The translations under genes and the position numbers were made by a program. Shown piece by piece: positions 9,242 through 14,380 of a stretch of DNA of 43,867 bases. The notes under the pieces were generated by a model, which ran no database searches, was not told the DNA's origin, and saw only the letters and a program-made list of their open reading frames with translations. Position 1 is the stretch's first letter; each line of letters opens with the position of its first letter. This DNA is from Nitrospirota bacterium (GTDB lineage: Bacteria; Nitrospirota; Thermodesulfovibrionia; Thermodesulfovibrionales; JdFR-86), in assembly GCA_037386965.1 (NCBI GenBank), contig JARRLN010000005.1:1-43867 (forward strand), in the 5' to 3' direction.

Positions 9242-9718
9242 ATGCAGGTACTGGTTCTTTACTATTCCAAGGGAGGGAACACCCGCAAGCTGGCAGAAGA
9301 GGTGGCCAGGGGCGTGGAGTCCACGGGGGCCAAGGCGGTGATGAGGAACACCGGGGAGGTCACCAAGGACGATTTCCTCAACGCGGCGGGCATCATAGCG
9401 GGCTCTCCGGTTTATTTCGGCGTCATGGCCTGGGAACTCAAGAAGATATTCGACGAGTTCGTGGGGACGCGGAGAAAGATGGAAGGCAAGGTGGGAGCCG
9501 CCTTCGCCACCGGGGGACATCCCACCGGAGGGAAGGAGACCACGATATTCTCCATCCTTCAGTGCATGCTCATCTATGGAATGGCCGTGGTGGGCGACCC
9601 CATGAGTGCATCGGGCCACTACGGGGTCGGGTGCGTGGGCGCTCCGGACGAGCAGGCGGCCGAGCACGGGAGGCTCCTGGGCGCCCGGGTGGCCGAGCTC
9701 TGTAAGAAACTCGGGTAG
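9242..9718 (+). CDS. Flavodoxin-fold NAD(P)H/FMN protein (WrbA-like)
   Basis: 158 aa. The N-terminus MQVLVLYYSKGGNTRKLAEE is a flavodoxin/WrbA FMN-phosphate loop (S-K-G-G-N-T). Further family segments are AGSPVYFGVMAWELKKIFDEF and AFATGGHPTGGKETT, which line the flavin site. Likely an FMN-binding NAD(P)H:quinone oxidoreductase or electron-carrier protein in the cytosol. AAGGAGGAG precedes the ATG, and TATAAT (9192-9197) supplies a probable -10 with a 35-40 nt leader. Monocistronic. Family certain, substrate not. Confidence 0.9.
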   Translation: MQVLVLYYSKGGNTRKLAEEVARGVESTGAKAVMRNTGEVTKDDFLNAAGIIAGSPVYFGVMAWELKKIFDEFVGTRRKMEGKVGAAFATGGHPTGGKETTIFSILQCMLIYGMAVVGDPMSASGHYGVGCVGAPDEQAAEHGRLLGARVAELCKKLG

Positions 9719-9819
9719 AGGGGTGCCCGTTGTGCGGCTGACCATCGCCGCTTAAGGCGTTCCCTGGGCTTCGTGCGGGGACGCCGACCGGAGGGCTTTC
9801 ACCGCCCTTCCTGCTCCGG

Positions 9820-9828
9820 TGCTATAAT
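9820..9828 (+). promoter_or_regulatory. Extended -10 (TGCTATAAT), likely leaderless transcript
   Basis: The hexamer ends 6 nt before the ATG at 9835 and there is no Shine-Dalgarno, so transcription should begin at or next to the start codon. Confidence 0.6.
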
Positions 9829-9834
9829 CAAGGG

Positions 9835-10125
9835 ATGGAGGATTTTCTCAGGTCTCTGTTCGAGCGCCTGCAGGTCCGGTCCCATTCCCAGGCAGTCAGG
9901 CTCGTCAAGACCGTGGTGGGGTTTACCCTTCTTCTGGCCGGCATCGCCATGACCGTCCTGCCCGGCCCCGCCGTGGTCGTCATCCCCCTGGCCCTGGGCA
10001 TCCTTGCCAGCGAGTTCCTCTGGGCGCGGCGCCTCCTCCAGCGTTTCCACCGGGAGTTCAACAACTTGCGAAACCATCAGAATAACAAGCGGAAGAAAGG
10101 CGAAAGGGCCGAAAGGAAGGATTGA
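9835..10125 (+). CDS. PGPGW-type small transmembrane protein
   Basis: 96 aa. After a charged N-terminus, LLLAGIAMTVLPGPAVVVIP holds the PGP core of the putative transmembrane PGPGW family, followed by LGILASEFLWARRLL and a basic, Lys/Arg-rich tail. Two membrane segments are expected (about 26-46 and 48-65). Function is unknown in the family. The gene has no ribosome site and a -10 box 6 nt upstream. It ends just before the large GC palindrome at 10130-10165. Confidence 0.85.
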   Translation: MEDFLRSLFERLQVRSHSQAVRLVKTVVGFTLLLAGIAMTVLPGPAVVVIPLALGILASEFLWARRLLQRFHREFNNLRNHQNNKRKKGERAERKD

Positions 10126-10129
10126 AGCC

Positions 10130-10176
10130 GTGCCCCCCGCTGTGCCACTGGCACAGCGGGGGCACGGTTCTGTGCC
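10130..10176. promoter_or_regulatory. Large palindrome pair: candidate activator site and/or terminator
   Basis: 10130-10165 forms a near-perfect hairpin with core TGTGCC-ACT-GGCACA (10141-10155). An overlapping repeat, GGCAC-N6-GTGCC, runs 10161-10176. No T tract follows, so a pure terminator role is doubtful. Its position, 86-107 bp upstream of the -24 element at 10253, fits an enhancer for a sigma-54 activator other than the one serving P1 and P2 (TGTGCC rather than TGTCCC). Confidence 0.55.
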
Positions 10177-10252
10177 GCCGCCTGCGCCTCGGCCCGGAGC
10201 GCCCAGCCTGAAAAGGGCCCATGAAAGAGGCTTTTCGTCGTTTTCTTCCTTA

Positions 10253-10268
10253 TGGCACGCATCTTGAC
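10253..10268 (+). promoter_or_regulatory. Sigma-54-like promoter P3
   Basis: TGGCACG-N4-TTGAC: a consensus -24 half (GG at 10254-10255), with GA instead of GC at the -12 (10266-10267), spacing 12 bp. The predicted start near 10279 leaves a 13-nt leader that just holds the Shine-Dalgarno of the STAS gene. Confidence 0.6.
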
Positions 10269-10291
10269 TGCTCCGGCGCGAGGAGGGCCGG

Positions 10292-10693
10292 GTGATTGCC
10301 TCCAAGACCCTGGAGTCAGGCTGCGTGGGAGAGCTTTGCGTCACGGGTGCTCTTCCGCTGGAGGACATGGATGAGCTTGCGATAGCCCTGATGCGCATGC
10401 TCTTCAGCTACGAGCACGTGGTGCTCAACCTCGAGGGCCTGACATCCCTGGACTCCCCGTGCCTGCGCGTCCTGTGCTCCGTGCACAGGATGTCCGAAAA
10501 CCTGAACAAGTCCATGACCTTGCGCGGCAAGAGCCTCGAGGTCCTCGAGGCTCTTGTGCAGAAAGGCGGTTACTGCGCGCGCCCCTGCGCCTTGAGGTCT
10601 CTGGGCACGCGCTGTTTCTTCCGGGGGCGGGAGCCCCGGCGGCGGGACCTCGGAGGCGGGTCCGCTACCGGTCGTGCTTCTGAATCATCTTGA
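10292..10693 (+). CDS. STAS-domain protein with Cys-rich C-terminus
   Basis: 133 aa from GTG, with AGGAGG 5 nt upstream. Residues 1-90 fit a STAS (anti-sigma-factor antagonist) domain: strand GELCVTGALP, then VVLNLEGLTSLDSPCLRVL, where LDSPCLRVL matches the D-S-x-G-L-x-x-L loop whose Ser is phosphorylated in SpoIIAA-type proteins, then helix VHRMSENLNKSM. The tail GYCARPCALRSLGTRCFFRG holds three Cys in a short basic stretch, possibly a metal or redox site. The C-terminal 29 bp overlap the 3' end of the convergent disulfide isomerase gene. Likely a phospho-switch component; the partner kinase is not in the window. Confidence 0.75.
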   Translation: MIASKTLESGCVGELCVTGALPLEDMDELAIALMRMLFSYEHVVLNLEGLTSLDSPCLRVLCSVHRMSENLNKSMTLRGKSLEVLEALVQKGGYCARPCALRSLGTRCFFRGREPRRRDLGGGSATGRASESS

Positions 10694-11444
10694 GAAGCTC
10701 CTCCGCACTCACGGCCCCGCTGGCGAGAGTGCCGTCCTCGAAGACCATGGCGGGAGTGCCGTCGATTCCCATGCTCCGGGCAAGCCGGACGGTCTGGTCG
10801 ACGACGTCCGTCTGGCATGTGGGGTCCGGGAGGGTCTTTCTCGCGTACGCATCCTCCAGCATCGCAAGCGCCTTGTCGTTGGAGCCCGCGCAGACGATGG
10901 CCTTTGCCATTTTGTAGGCCTGCGGATGTATCTGTGCCAGGGGGAGCATCTTCAGGTAAAAGACGACATCGTCCCTTTCCGCTATCACCTTCTTCATCTC
11001 CTGATGAAGTTTTGCGCAGTAGGGTCACTGCGGGTCGTCAAAGACGACGACCCGATGCTTGGCCTGGGCGTTGCCCAGTGTGATGGCGTCCTTCAGGGGG
11101 ATGGCCGAAAAGTCCACCTTGGTGATCTCGTTGTACCTTTGCTTGGTGAGGTTTTCCCGGGTGGCAATCTCGACGACGGAGCCCAGGATGATGTGCTTTC
11201 CCGCCTGGTCGAGGTAAACGATGCCCTTCTTGCCCTTGCTCATCAGGACCACTTCCCAGAGGCCTTTCACCTCGGCAGGCTTGACGCTGAGCACCTGGAC
11301 ATCCGAAACCAGGGGACGGATGATATCTTCGGCCTCCTTGGTGCTCAGGGACTTCTCGGAGGCGGCGATTCCCATTGCCCCGGCCACAAGCAACGCGGCC
11401 AGGACCAGAAGAAGCGCCGGTTTCCAGCTGTTGCGGTTTCCCAT
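10665..11444 (-). CDS. DsbC/DsbG-like disulfide isomerase, probable selenoprotein (in-frame TGA at 11025-11027)
   Basis: 260 codons, including one internal TGA at residue 140. The N-terminus is a signal peptide (WKPALLLVLAALLVAGAMG), followed by a DsbC-type N-terminal domain (about 30-120). The thioredoxin-fold domain begins VVVFDDPQ-TGA-PYCAKLH, so the TGA falls exactly where DsbC/DsbG proteins have the first Cys of Cys-Pro-Tyr-Cys. Reading it as selenocysteine gives a U-P-Y-C active site (U140, C143). Downstream are the structural pair in AIVCAGS and DPTCQT and the cis-Pro loop IDGTPAMVF, so the frame is intact on both sides. AAGGAG lies 7 nt before the ATG. Predicted periplasmic thiol-disulfide isomerase or reductase. 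Alternatives: a pseudogene or a sequencing error of TGC to TGA. Confidence 0.85.
10992..11009 (-). promoter_or_regulatory. Candidate bacterial SECIS hairpin
   Basis: In the mRNA, CUUCAUC-AGGA-GAUGAAG forms a perfect 7-bp stem with a 4-nt loop. It starts 15 nt after the UGA, and the loop lies 22 nt after it. A G among the first two loop bases and this distance agree with the general rules for bacterial SECIS elements read by SelB. Confidence 0.7.
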
Positions 11445-11517
11445 TATGGCTCCTTGAGAGTAAATTTTCGCTTTTCCGTTCAGGCGTTCTATTATAAACC
11501 CTGCGGTCCCTTTTTTC

Positions 11518-11865
11518 CTATGCCCGTTCCCCGGTCCGGACGTTCGGGTCGCATCGGGAGGATGCGGGACCCCGCGTGGAAGCCAGCAGCCGGAGGTCCG
11601 TGAAGACGGGGCCTTCGTCGCAGCAGGGAAACAGCATCTGCACGAACTTCCTGAGATAGGCGGACCTGCGGTGCTCCTCCTGGGCCTTGTCGTCGCGGAA
11701 TGCCATGAGATGGACGAAGGTGACGCCGTCCTCCTCTTGATAGGCCTCGTACAACAGGGTGCCCGCCTCCTTCCTGCCGACGCTTTGCACGAAATCAGCC
11801 ACGGCCCGTCTGGTTTCGTCCACCTTCCCCCGCTTTACCCTGTATCTGGCCATGATGTGCGTCAC
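11518..11865 (-). CDS. Antibiotic biosynthesis monooxygenase-like (ABM fold) protein
   Basis: 115 aa from GTG 11865, with GGAGGAGG upstream; ATG 11853 is four codons further in. The pattern MARYRVKRGKVDETRRAVAD.., EAGTLLYEAYQEEDGVTFVHL and HRRSAYLRKFVQML is that of the dimeric alpha/beta-barrel ABM/quinol monooxygenase family. These are small cofactor-free or heme-binding enzymes, and many members have no known substrate. The C-terminus carries CC in LFPCCDEGPVF. It lies 59 bp upstream of the disulfide isomerase start in the same orientation, without clear linkage. Confidence 0.75.
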   Translation of the reverse strand: MTHIMARYRVKRGKVDETRRAVADFVQSVGRKEAGTLLYEAYQEEDGVTFVHLMAFRDDKAQEEHRRSAYLRKFVQMLFPCCDEGPVFTDLRLLASTRGPASSRCDPNVRTGERA

Positions 11866-11924
11866 GACCGCGCCTCCTCCATGGAACGGGCTTGAATCCA
11901 TTGTCGGGCATTTCGGAGGAGATG

Positions 11925-12356
11925 TCAAAAGCCTTCGGGAGGAGGAGGGGCCAGGCGTTTCACGTCCGGAGGGAGACGCCGGGGCCGGCCCCGGCCGTCG
12001 GCGCAGGCCAGGGTCACGGTGGCCTCCGCACACAGGGTATCGTCCCTCCGGACGAGATGTCTGAGGGTCATTGTGGCCCTGCCCAGCTCGGCGACCTCGG
12101 TGCTCACTTGAAGGACCTCGCCCAGCCGGACGGGCCTTCTGTAGCGGATGTCCACACGGGTTACCACATAGGAGAGGCCTTCGCCGTGGGCGCCCAGGAC
12201 GTCCACCCCCCGCTCTTCGAAAAAATCCATCCGGGCCCTCTCCATGTACCGGAGATAGTTGGCATAGTAGACCACGCCGCCGGCGTCCGTGTCCTCGTAG
12301 TAAATCTTGACTCTGATGGAGTGGGCCGGCTCTCTGGTCTCTCTATTTCCGCTCAT
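11925..12356 (-). CDS. YbgC-like acyl-CoA thioesterase (hot-dog fold)
   Basis: 143 aa. YYEDTDAGGVVYYANYLRYM is the 4-hydroxybenzoyl-CoA thioesterase/YbgC signature with the catalytic Asp in D-T-D-A-G-G-V-V-Y; IRYRRPVRLGEVLQV and the later strands complete a single hot-dog domain. It hydrolyses short-chain or hydroxy acyl-CoA thioesters in the cytosol; in many bacteria it sits with tol-pal genes, which are absent here. The C-terminus is Pro-rich (LAPPPPEGF). Confidence 0.92.
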   Translation of the reverse strand: MSGNRETREPAHSIRVKIYYEDTDAGGVVYYANYLRYMERARMDFFEERGVDVLGAHGEGLSYVVTRVDIRYRRPVRLGEVLQVSTEVAELGRATMTLRHLVRRDDTLCAEATVTLACADGRGRPRRLPPDVKRLAPPPPEGF

Positions 12357-12422
12357 GGGGGGCTTCGGCGCCGCGGCTGGCCGAGAAGCGGGAAAGAGGC
12401 CGGCTGTGGATGCCCGAGGAGT

Positions 12423-12947
12423 TCAGTCTTCCTCCGACCAATCCCAGGCGTAAGCGCTCCTGGCCTTGACCGCTTTGCGTTTCTCCGAGTCGCCGAAGGT
12501 CCCGGCGAATGCCCTTATCTTTTCCCTGTGGCGCTCCATCTCAGACACGGTGGCTTTCGCGCTCTCCGAGGCCAGGTACTTTCCGATGAGGAAGCGGAAA
12601 ACGTCGTTCACTTCGGAGGACTCTATTTTCGCCGCCAGGAAGTAGGCCTCGTCCAGGCTCTCCACGTGCTCCGCGGCTGCCCCTTTCAGAAGCGAGAGCA
12701 CCCGCCGGGCTTTCTCGAGCATCTCGGGGTCCGCGGGGGTGTCCAGCTCGTCCCGGGGCAGCAGGCTCATCATCTGCGAGAGGTCCCGGGAGTGCTGTAT
12801 CTCATCGGCCATCATGCCTTTCCAGAAGCGGGCGGCCTCGGCAACATGAGAGAAGGCGTAGGAGAGCTTCAGATAAAACGCGTACGCCTCCGTCTCGGCG
12901 TGCACCGCGGTCTGGAAAAGGTCGAATATGGTCCCTTTGGTTTCCAT
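12423..12947 (-). CDS. Ferritin-like (rubrerythrin-type) diiron protein
   Basis: 174 aa from ATG 12947. A four-helix bundle is suggested by HAETEAYAFYLKLS (Glu-x6-Tyr of helix A), ADEIQHSRDL (Glu-x2-His of helix B), SLDEAYFLAAKIESSEV and HREKIRAFA. This resembles the ferritin-like domain of rubrerythrins and bacterial DUF-type diiron proteins; no rubredoxin Cys-x2-Cys module is present. Probable role in iron or peroxide handling. The frame is open upstream, but the TATAAT at 13000-13005 (minus strand) supports the shorter start. Confidence 0.8.
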   Translation of the reverse strand: METKGTIFDLFQTAVHAETEAYAFYLKLSYAFSHVAEAARFWKGMMADEIQHSRDLSQMMSLLPRDELDTPADPEMLEKARRVLSLLKGAAAEHVESLDEAYFLAAKIESSEVNDVFRFLIGKYLASESAKATVSEMERHREKIRAFAGTFGDSEKRKAVKARSAYAWDWSEED

Positions 12948-13055
12948 GGCGGCGTTTCGGGTCCTGCGGAATGATTGTGCTCCATCCGCCAGGGACTCTA
13001 TTATACCCCACCGGGTGCCGGAGGTGCGAGGGACGTTCCGCTTTCCCGGTGTTTG

Positions 13056-13064
13056 TGGTATCAT
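13056..13064 (+). promoter_or_regulatory. Extended -10 (TGGTATCAT), likely leaderless transcript
   Basis: The hexamer ends 7 nt before ATG 13072 and there is no Shine-Dalgarno. Confidence 0.5.
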
Positions 13065-13071
13065 CTGTCGC

Positions 13072-13536
13072 ATGATGACGCCCAGCGAAGTGCGGAGAAA
13101 GATACTCCTTGCCCTGTATGAGCATTCCCGCCCGGGGGAGGGGGAGTACCTGGACACTTCCGAACTGTTCAAGCGCCTGAAGCTCGAAGACCTGGTCGAG
13201 TACTGGGAGGACATCCGCTACCTGCACGACGAGGAGTACGTGGACGGCACCCCGGTCCCGTACATGAGGCAGGGCTACATGCCCCGGGTCCGCCTTACCG
13301 CCAAGGGCCTGGCGGTGGCGGAAGACCCCGAAAAACTGGACCGCGCCTTTCCAGGGGACCCCGCTCGACACGCCGTGGAGGCCTTCCTGAAAAGCTACCG
13401 CCTCGAGCTGGAGAAGGCCCTCGTCGCCGACGAGGAGAAGGAACGGATATTTCTGCATCTGGAGCGCCTCGCCTCTCATCCGGTGGGGATGAGGGTCCTG
13501 GAGAAGGTCCTCACCTCCAGGGAGGCCGGGGGATAA
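13072..13536 (+). CDS. Winged-helix-like hypothetical protein
   Basis: 154 aa. Not recognised. The first 85 residues (TPSEVRRKILLALYEHSRP, DTSELFKRLK, LVEYWEDIRYLHDEEYVDG, RLTAKGLAVAE) have the helix-helix-wing pattern of a DNA-binding winged helix of the PadR/MarR type. The C-terminal half is acidic helix (ALVADEEKERIFLHLERLA). Possible transcription factor. Divergent from the ferritin-like gene across a 124-bp promoter region and close to uppP downstream. Confidence 0.7.
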   Translation: MMTPSEVRRKILLALYEHSRPGEGEYLDTSELFKRLKLEDLVEYWEDIRYLHDEEYVDGTPVPYMRQGYMPRVRLTAKGLAVAEDPEKLDRAFPGDPARHAVEAFLKSYRLELEKALVADEEKERIFLHLERLASHPVGMRVLEKVLTSREAGG

Positions 13537-13595
13537 AGTCCTTCCCCGGTCCGCTCCGGTCCCTTCCCTGTATATACAAAAACCGCCCTTCCGCT

Positions 13596-13604
13596 TGATA
13601 TAAT
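13596..13604 (+). promoter_or_regulatory. Extended -10 (TGATATAAT) of uppP-ftsK
   Basis: ATG codons follow at 2 nt (13607) and 8 nt (13613). The second would give a leaderless message. No Shine-Dalgarno is present. Confidence 0.55.
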
Positions 13605-13606
13605 GG

Positions 13607-14380
13607 ATGGTCATGGTCGCTGCGGTCCTCCTGGGAATCGTGCAAGGCATCACGGAGTTCTTCCCCATAAGCTCCACGGCCCATCTCGTCCTTTTCCCCT
13701 GGTTCTTCGGCTGGACCGGCACCCTGAATTCTCTTGCCTTCGACGTCGCACTGCACGGGGGCACCCTGGTCAGCCTTCTGATATGTTTCCGCCGGGACCT
13801 CGTCGCGATGCTCCGGGAAGACAGGCGGCTCCTTCTTTTCATCGCCGCCGGCACGGTGCCGGCGGGCTTGGCGGGCCTGCTCTTCGAGGAGCAGGTGGGA
13901 GGGCTGTTAAGGGTCCCCGTCGTTATCGCCGCGGCCCTGGTGGTGGTGGGTGTGGTGATGTATGTTTCGGAGCGTTTTGGGAAGGGCAGGCCCCTGGCGG
14001 GCATAACGCTCCGGGATGCCCTCTTCGTCGGCGCGGCCCAGGCGATGGCCCTGGTGCCGGGGGTGTCGCGCTCCGGCATCACCATCTCCGCCGGCCTGAT
14101 GCGGGGGGTGGGGCGGGAGGACGCCGCGCGTTTCTCCTTTCTCCTTTCCATCCCCGTGGTGGCGGGCGCCGCCGTCCTGGAGGGAAAAGAGCTTTTCACG
14201 AGCCCCCAGGCCTATGACCTGCGCCTCGTGGGCGTGGGTTTTCTGGTCTCCACTCTGGTGGGCATCGCTGCCATAGAGTTTCTGCTGCGGTATCTCAAAT
14301 CTCATACGCTGAACCTGTTCGTCCTCTACAGGGTGCTCCTGGCCGCGGTCATCGGAGGTTGGATATGGCTGGGCGGATAA
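13607..14380 (+). CDS. uppP: Undecaprenyl-diphosphate phosphatase (BacA/UppP)
   Basis: 257 aa integral membrane enzyme that dephosphorylates undecaprenyl pyrophosphate to recycle the lipid carrier of cell-wall synthesis. The two family motifs are clear: GIVQGITEFFPISSTAHL (Glu-rich motif, about 10-27) and PGVSRSGITIS (about 150). About eight membrane segments. Two in-frame ATGs exist; 13613 lies 8 nt after the -10 box and may be the real, leaderless start, losing two residues. The 3' end overlaps ftsK by 16 bp. Confidence 0.95.
   Translation: MVMVAAVLLGIVQGITEFFPISSTAHLVLFPWFFGWTGTLNSLAFDVALHGGTLVSLLICFRRDLVAMLREDRRLLLFIAAGTVPAGLAGLLFEEQVGGLLRVPVVIAAALVVVGVVMYVSERFGKGRPLAGITLRDALFVGAAQAMALVPGVSRSGITISAGLMRGVGREDAARFSFLLSIPVVAGAAVLEGKELFTSPQAYDLRLVGVGFLVSTLVGIAAIEFLLRYLKSHTLNLFVLYRVLLAAVIGGWIWLGG

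What the first reader, a model, noticed from the sequence alone, without database searches (positions are those of the whole stretch)
10992..11444. In-frame UGA at the active-site Cys of a DsbC/DsbG-like protein, with a SECIS-like hairpin: a probable selenoprotein isomerase
Seen: the reading frame is continuous from the signal peptide through FDDPQ-TGA-PYCAKLH to the cis-Pro loop GTPAM and beyond. The only stop is a TGA at codon 140, exactly where DsbC/DsbG have the first Cys of Cys-x-x-Cys. The mRNA then folds CUUCAUC-AGGA-GAUGAAG starting 15 nt after the UGA. Known: bacterial Sec insertion needs UGA plus a hairpin at about this distance with a loop G, and Sec commonly replaces the nucleophilic Cys of thioredoxin-fold proteins. 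Inferred: a periplasmic U-x-x-C disulfide isomerase or reductase; an ordinary gene caller would split it into two fragments.
Basis: partly seen in the sequence, partly recalled or inferred. Interest (0 to 1): 0.88.

Follow-up and report, generated by a model that had tools for sequence, protein, structure and literature searches.

The report
Selenocysteine-containing DsbC-type disulfide isomerase
A bacterial periplasmic enzyme that repairs wrongly paired disulfide bonds is built here with the rare amino acid selenocysteine at its reactive site, so a stop codon inside the gene is read through on purpose and ordinary gene callers would cut the gene in two.

Summary
The finding holds. In 136 homologues the column is always UGA (79) or Cys (57). 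The hairpin 15 nt after the UGA is complete in 79/79 UGA genes and 1/57 Cys genes, although synonymous codons would keep it in only about 5%; four two-sided base-pair changes keep it paired at the cost of an amino-acid change. The hairpin meets all four published bacterial SECIS criteria. Every aligned relative has the DsbC_N dimerisation domain; the predicted structure matches solved DsbC. Sec insertion is close to certain by sequence. The isomerase/reductase role, fed by CcdA, is inferred. Sec-UxxC thioredoxin-fold enzymes are a known kind, and a named family ('thiol:disulfide interchange protein', PF13098) may already include it; DsbC is not named as a selenoprotein in the reviews I read. 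New here: breadth in Nitrospirota, repeated Sec/Cys switching, and a frozen SECIS.

The parts
10665..11444 (-). Complete selenoprotein gene: 259-residue periplasmic DsbC-type protein with Sec140 (U-P-Y-C), stop TAG at 10665-10667
   Evidence: Translation with TGA as Sec; PF10411 DsbC_N, PF13098, NCBIfam DsbC best; homologues
11025..11027 (-). In-frame UGA, codon 140, at the first active-site Cys position
   Evidence: UGA in 79 and TGC/TGT in 57 of 136 homologues
10992..11009 (-). SECIS hairpin CUUCAUC-AGGA-GAUGAAG, 7 bp, loop G at position 2, loop 22 nt after the UGA
   Evidence: Folding; full in 79/79 Sec genes and 1/57 Cys genes; bacterial SECIS criteria
11016..11018 (-). Codon of Cys143, the resolving Cys of U-P-Y-C
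   Evidence: invariant in alignment A1; one relative outside A1, L146, has Ser
11370..11444 (-). N-terminal signal peptide region (approximate end)
   Evidence: Hydrophobic helix, residues 8-23 of the model; sequence; cleavage site not predicted with a dedicated tool
11145..11330 (-). DsbC_N dimerisation domain, residues 39-100
   Evidence: PF10411 6.9e-12; matched by 55/55 members of A1
11450..11455 (-). Shine-Dalgarno AAGGAG, 5 nt before the ATG
   Evidence: Sequence

Best explanation
This is a genuine selenoprotein gene. During translation SelB carrying Sec-tRNA binds the hairpin just downstream of the UGA and inserts selenocysteine as residue 140 (supported by sequence, machinery and conservation; not shown biochemically). 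The product is exported and should form a DsbC-like V-shaped dimer through DsbC_N (inferred from domain and fold). Its selenolate is the nucleophile that attacks wrong disulfides in periplasmic proteins, Cys143 resolves the mixed selenenylsulfide, and the pair is kept reduced from the cytoplasm through the CcdA-type membrane protein (inferred). It would therefore act as a disulfide isomerase/reductase, perhaps for the many Cys-rich periplasmic proteins of these bacteria.
For: Machinery in the same genome: tRNA-Sec 75 bits with anticodon TCA, SelB 363 bits, SelA 590 bits, SelD 362 bits with its own in-frame UGA and a similar CAUC-loop-GAUG hairpin. Column 140: 79 UGA and 57 Cys, nothing else, in 136 distinct homologues. 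Hairpin: 79/79 Sec genes have all 7 pairs, loop NG[GU]N and the same spacing, against a synonymous expectation of 5.4%; Cys genes sit at their own expectation. CTT is used in 79/79 Sec genes against 12/48 Leu codons in Cys genes. Two-sided pair changes in L144, L149, L173 (U-A to C-G, Met to Val) and L216 (U-A to C-G, Lys to Glu). Sec and hairpin switch together in 6-7 of 7 independent pairs on supported branches, p about 0.016. 63 of 67 genomes listed with a UGA-containing copy have selB. DsbC nature; a structural Cys pair (C185, C210) matches that of DsbC in the alignment. CcdA present. TGA is an ordinary stop for 10 of 25 gene-like ORFs of the window, so it is not reassigned genome-wide.
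Against: No protein or 75Se evidence. Activity, dimerisation and redox partner are inferred; a dimeric DsbC-like protein such as HP0231 of Helicobacter is described as an oxidase (abstract of PMC4597128). Four genomes with a UGA copy gave no selB match, though only the three best candidates per genome were scored. No conserved operon partner was found.
Confidence: 0.9

Rival explanations
1. It is a selenoprotein, but it works as something other than an isomerase: a DsbG-like rescuer of oxidised single cysteines, a reductant of apocytochrome c before haem attachment, or an oxidase.
For: The x-x pair P-Y is that of DsbG and glutaredoxins (own knowledge); most relatives carry a haem-c type CxxCH motif before DsbC_N, which points to a cytochrome link; the dimeric DsbC-like HP0231 is described as an oxidase (abstract of PMC4597128).
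Against: Profile and structure favour DsbC over DsbG; DsbC-type structural Cys pair kept; the window protein itself lacks CxxCH; no VKOR found (DsbB not searched).
Confidence: 0.25
2. UGA is a real stop and the gene is split or decayed; the downstream ATG fragment (10665-10997) and the upstream fragment (11025-11444) are separate products or a pseudogene.
For: A gene caller would report two ORFs of 139 and 110 aa.
Against: The same UGA at the same codon in 79 genes and both coding halves conserved at 40-57% identity; a conserved hairpin at nucleotide level; the split would separate the dimerisation domain from the catalytic site and remove the catalytic residue.
Confidence: 0.01
3. Sequencing or assembly error: the true codon is TGC or TGT.
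For: The genome is a 137-contig draft.
Against: Independent assemblies of other species carry the same UGA with the hairpin; the hairpin in this gene uses codons that are rare in its genome.
Confidence: 0.01
4. UGA is read as another amino acid (Trp or Cys) by a suppressor tRNA or altered code.
For: The frame is open under such codes.
Against: UGA ends many normal genes in the window; complete Sec machinery; hairpin tied to the UGA.
Confidence: 0.01

Closest known systems
DsbC, bacterial periplasmic disulfide isomerase (E. coli 1eej, Salmonella 4i5q, Yersinia 4npb)
   Same: Signal peptide, DsbC_N plus thioredoxin fold, active-site pair, cis-Pro after Thr, structural Cys pair; best sequence and structure matches
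   Different: Sec instead of the first active-site Cys; P-Y instead of G-Y between them; below NCBIfam's DsbC cut-off (102 against 215 bits)
Selenoprotein family 'Thiol:disulfide interchange protein' (PF13098, UxxC, WP_011366075.1; Geobacter, Syntrophus)
   Same: Same Pfam catalytic domain and UxxC motif (PMC13188914, PMC1794560); a Syntrophaceae genome has the Sec-DsbC gene (L051/L189)
   Different: Identity could not be tested, as that sequence is not held here; the tables read do not mention the DsbC_N domain or Nitrospirota
DsbG-like selenoprotein (NF041057, Rcas_1661 family)
   Same: UxxC in a thioredoxin fold
   Different: The window protein scores 13.9 bits against a cut-off of 190, so it is not that family
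DsbA-like selenoproteins (PF01323, UxxC)
   Same: UxxC, thioredoxin superfamily
   Different: DsbA lacks DsbC_N; the window protein matches DsbC better

Membership tests
Bacterial selenoproteins (co-translational Sec at UGA) | In-frame UGA aligned with Cys in homologues | tested here: met
   79 UGA and 57 Cys in 136
Bacterial selenoproteins (co-translational Sec at UGA) | selA, selB, selC, selD in the genome | tested here: met
Bacterial selenoproteins (co-translational Sec at UGA) | bSECIS: loop 3-9 nt, stem 4-16 bp, G in the first two loop positions, 16-37 nt from UGA to loop, energy at most -7.5 kcal/mol | tested here: met
   4 nt, 7 bp, G at position 2 followed by G, 22 nt, -8.0 to -11.8
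Bacterial selenoproteins (co-translational Sec at UGA) | Selenium in the product | not testable with these tools
   Needs 75Se labelling or mass spectrometry
DsbC disulfide isomerases | DsbC_N dimerisation domain plus thioredoxin-fold catalytic domain | tested here: met
   PF10411 45 bits (cut-off 25) and PF13098 72 bits; 55/55 relatives; model pLDDT 92.8 with solved DsbC structures as best matches
DsbC disulfide isomerases | Active-site C-x-x-C and cis-Pro loop | tested here: met
   U140-P-Y-C143, GTPAM; P231 invariant
DsbC disulfide isomerases | Over NCBIfam's equivalog cut-off for DsbC (PRK10877, 215 bits) | tested here: not met
   102 bits, so DsbC-type, not called a strict DsbC orthologue
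DsbC disulfide isomerases | Homodimer and isomerase activity | not testable with these tools
   Needs the purified protein
DsbC disulfide isomerases | Membrane reductant (DsbD/CcdA) | tested here: met
   CcdA-type protein at C31; no physical link shown
DsbG-like selenoprotein NF041057 | Over the NCBIfam cut-off of 190 bits | tested here: not met
   13.9 bits
Thiol:disulfide interchange selenoprotein (PF13098 UxxC) | Sequence homology to WP_011366075.1 | not testable with these tools
   Sequence not held; only the shared Pfam domain and motif are known

The most novel reading that the evidence does not exclude
In Nitrospirota the periplasmic disulfide isomerase has become a selenoenzyme that repeatedly swaps Sec and Cys, and in most relatives it is additionally a monohaem c-type cytochrome (CxxCH before DsbC_N), so electrons for disulfide repair may come from or through a haem rather than only from CcdA. 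The window's protein would belong to the haem-less branch.
Probability: 0.3. Interest if true: 0.8.

Novelty: new member of a known kind. Interest (0 to 1): 0.58.

Why it matters
It puts selenium at the centre of periplasmic disulfide repair in a poorly cultured phylum and shows that many such genes are likely mis-annotated as two fragments (no NCBIfam model covers the Sec form). The family is an unusually good natural experiment on Sec/Cys exchange: close homologues with and without Sec, often in one genome, in which the hairpin is lost when Sec is lost, with one Cys gene still carrying it (L091).

Tried and rejected
Rfam gave no match in the region, so the published bSECIS criteria were used instead. 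A genome-wide search for the exact hairpin found only this site; selD uses a related but different hairpin. Two Nitrospirota homologues listed with TAG or TAA stops were checked in case Sec had moved to another stop codon: both are TGC at the active site and the one stop in the aligned stretch (L123) lies far downstream. Extra TGAs in L088 and L148 lie about 142-144 codons upstream, probably before the start codon. Conserved gene neighbours were sought in 49 loci; no convincing partner, only a generic response-regulator cluster in 18. VKOR is absent. The original 2004 description of the PF13098 UxxC selenoprotein is not held.

Full report
What is there. The minus strand from 11444 to 10665 encodes a 259-residue exported protein interrupted by one TGA, codon 140. 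It has a hydrophobic N-terminal segment, a DsbC_N domain and a thioredoxin-fold domain. The TGA falls where DsbC has its first active-site Cys: U-P-Y-C. Solved DsbC proteins are the best sequence matches, and the AlphaFold model (pLDDT 92.8) finds DsbC structures first. The full-chain TM-scores are moderate (about 0.5) while the catalytic domains alone superpose well (3gv1, TMt 0.84), as expected if the hinge angle between the domains differs.

Is UGA translated as Sec? Four lines agree. First, the genome (2.54 Mb, 97% complete, Nitrospirota by its neighbours) has tRNA-Sec with anticodon TCA, SelB, SelA and SelD, the last with its own in-frame UGA. Second, across 136 distinct homologous genes the column is UGA in 79 and TGC/TGT in 57, never anything else. 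Third, the hairpin 15 nt after the UGA is complete in all 79 UGA genes with a loop NG[GU]N, while synonymous re-draws keep it in 5.4% on average; the 57 Cys genes lie at their own random expectation and only one keeps it. Codon choice shows the constraint directly: Leu is CTT in 79/79 Sec genes against 12/48 in Cys genes, the last Lys is AAG in 79/79 against 21/57. Fourth, the stem covaries: L144, L149 and L173 change a U-A pair to C-G and accept Met to Val, and L216, from the search in the phylum of Geopsychrobacter, changes another U-A to C-G and accepts Lys to Glu. The hairpin meets the four published bSECIS criteria (PMC13188914).

Relatedness caveat. The homologues share ancestry, so counts are not independent events. 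On a tree built without the active-site residue, 24 Sec/Cys changes are needed on the best tree and at least 7 on well-supported branches; in 6-7 of 7 independent pairs the hairpin changes with the codon (sign test p about 0.016). The direction of the changes is not determined by this unrooted count. L091, a Cys gene with an intact hairpin, looks like a recent Sec-to-Cys change.

Distribution. In a sample of 396 Nitrospirota genomes 157 have a homologue. 67 genomes list a copy with a UGA in the match, and 63 of them have selB; the four exceptions may be draft gaps or limits of the search. Genomes often hold two or three copies, mixing Sec and Cys; the window's genome has a partial Cys copy at a contig end (C85). 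In 395 genomes of the phylum that contains the Geopsychrobacter locus L055, 108 have a homologue, but the Sec form with hairpin was confirmed in only three.

How it most likely works. Shown by sequence: exported DsbC-type protein, Sec codon, SECIS, Sec machinery, CcdA-type membrane reductant. Inferred: the selenolate attacks wrong disulfides, Cys143 resolves, CcdA re-reduces, and the DsbC_N domain gives a dimer that is not oxidised by the DsbA partner. Function other than isomerisation is possible: the P-Y pair is that of DsbG, and no activity can be tested here.

Known or new. Sec in UxxC thioredoxin-fold proteins is a known kind, and the reviews list a 'thiol:disulfide interchange protein' (PF13098, UxxC) from Geobacter and Syntrophus (PMC13188914, PMC1794560) that could be the same family; I could not compare the sequences. 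The 2026 review does not mention DsbC and a search for papers with DsbC and selenoprotein found none describing a Sec-DsbC of this kind. NCBIfam has no model that fits: all 55 aligned members match the DsbC model, the window protein far below its cut-off. I therefore call it a new member of a known kind with a new distribution, not a new category.

Side finding. 107 of the 136 homologues carry CxxCH directly after the signal peptide, as in c-type cytochromes. The window protein and its nearest relatives lack it. Whether haem is bound is unknown.

Noticed in passing
107 of 136 homologues, e.g. L164:5-766, L043:4007-4798: A haem-c type CxxCH motif (about 113 residues before the active site) precedes DsbC_N in most relatives, Sec and Cys alike; it suggests monohaem cytochrome-DsbC fusions. 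The window protein lacks it.
   Followed up: partly
L146 (G154:C1:2087717-2088403): A Sec form with U-P-F-S: the resolving Cys is replaced by Ser, in a genome with two further Sec copies.
   Followed up: no
L091: A Cys-codon homologue that still has the complete SECIS hairpin, probably a recent Sec-to-Cys replacement.
   Followed up: partly
L186 (G000:C114), selD: selD of the same genome has an in-frame UGA followed by GUCCAUC-GGACCU-GAUGGAC, sharing CAUC/GAUG next to the loop with the DsbC SECIS.
   Followed up: partly
G000:C85:14175-14603: Second, Cys-type DsbC homologue in the same genome, cut by a contig end.
   Followed up: partly
window 9242-14380: Neighbours: FMN reductase/flavodoxin-like (9242-9718), PGPGW membrane protein (9835-10125), STAS protein (10292-10693), ABM monooxygenase (11518-12033), thioesterase (11925-12356), BacA (13607-14380); no obvious operon with the selenoprotein.
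   Followed up: partly
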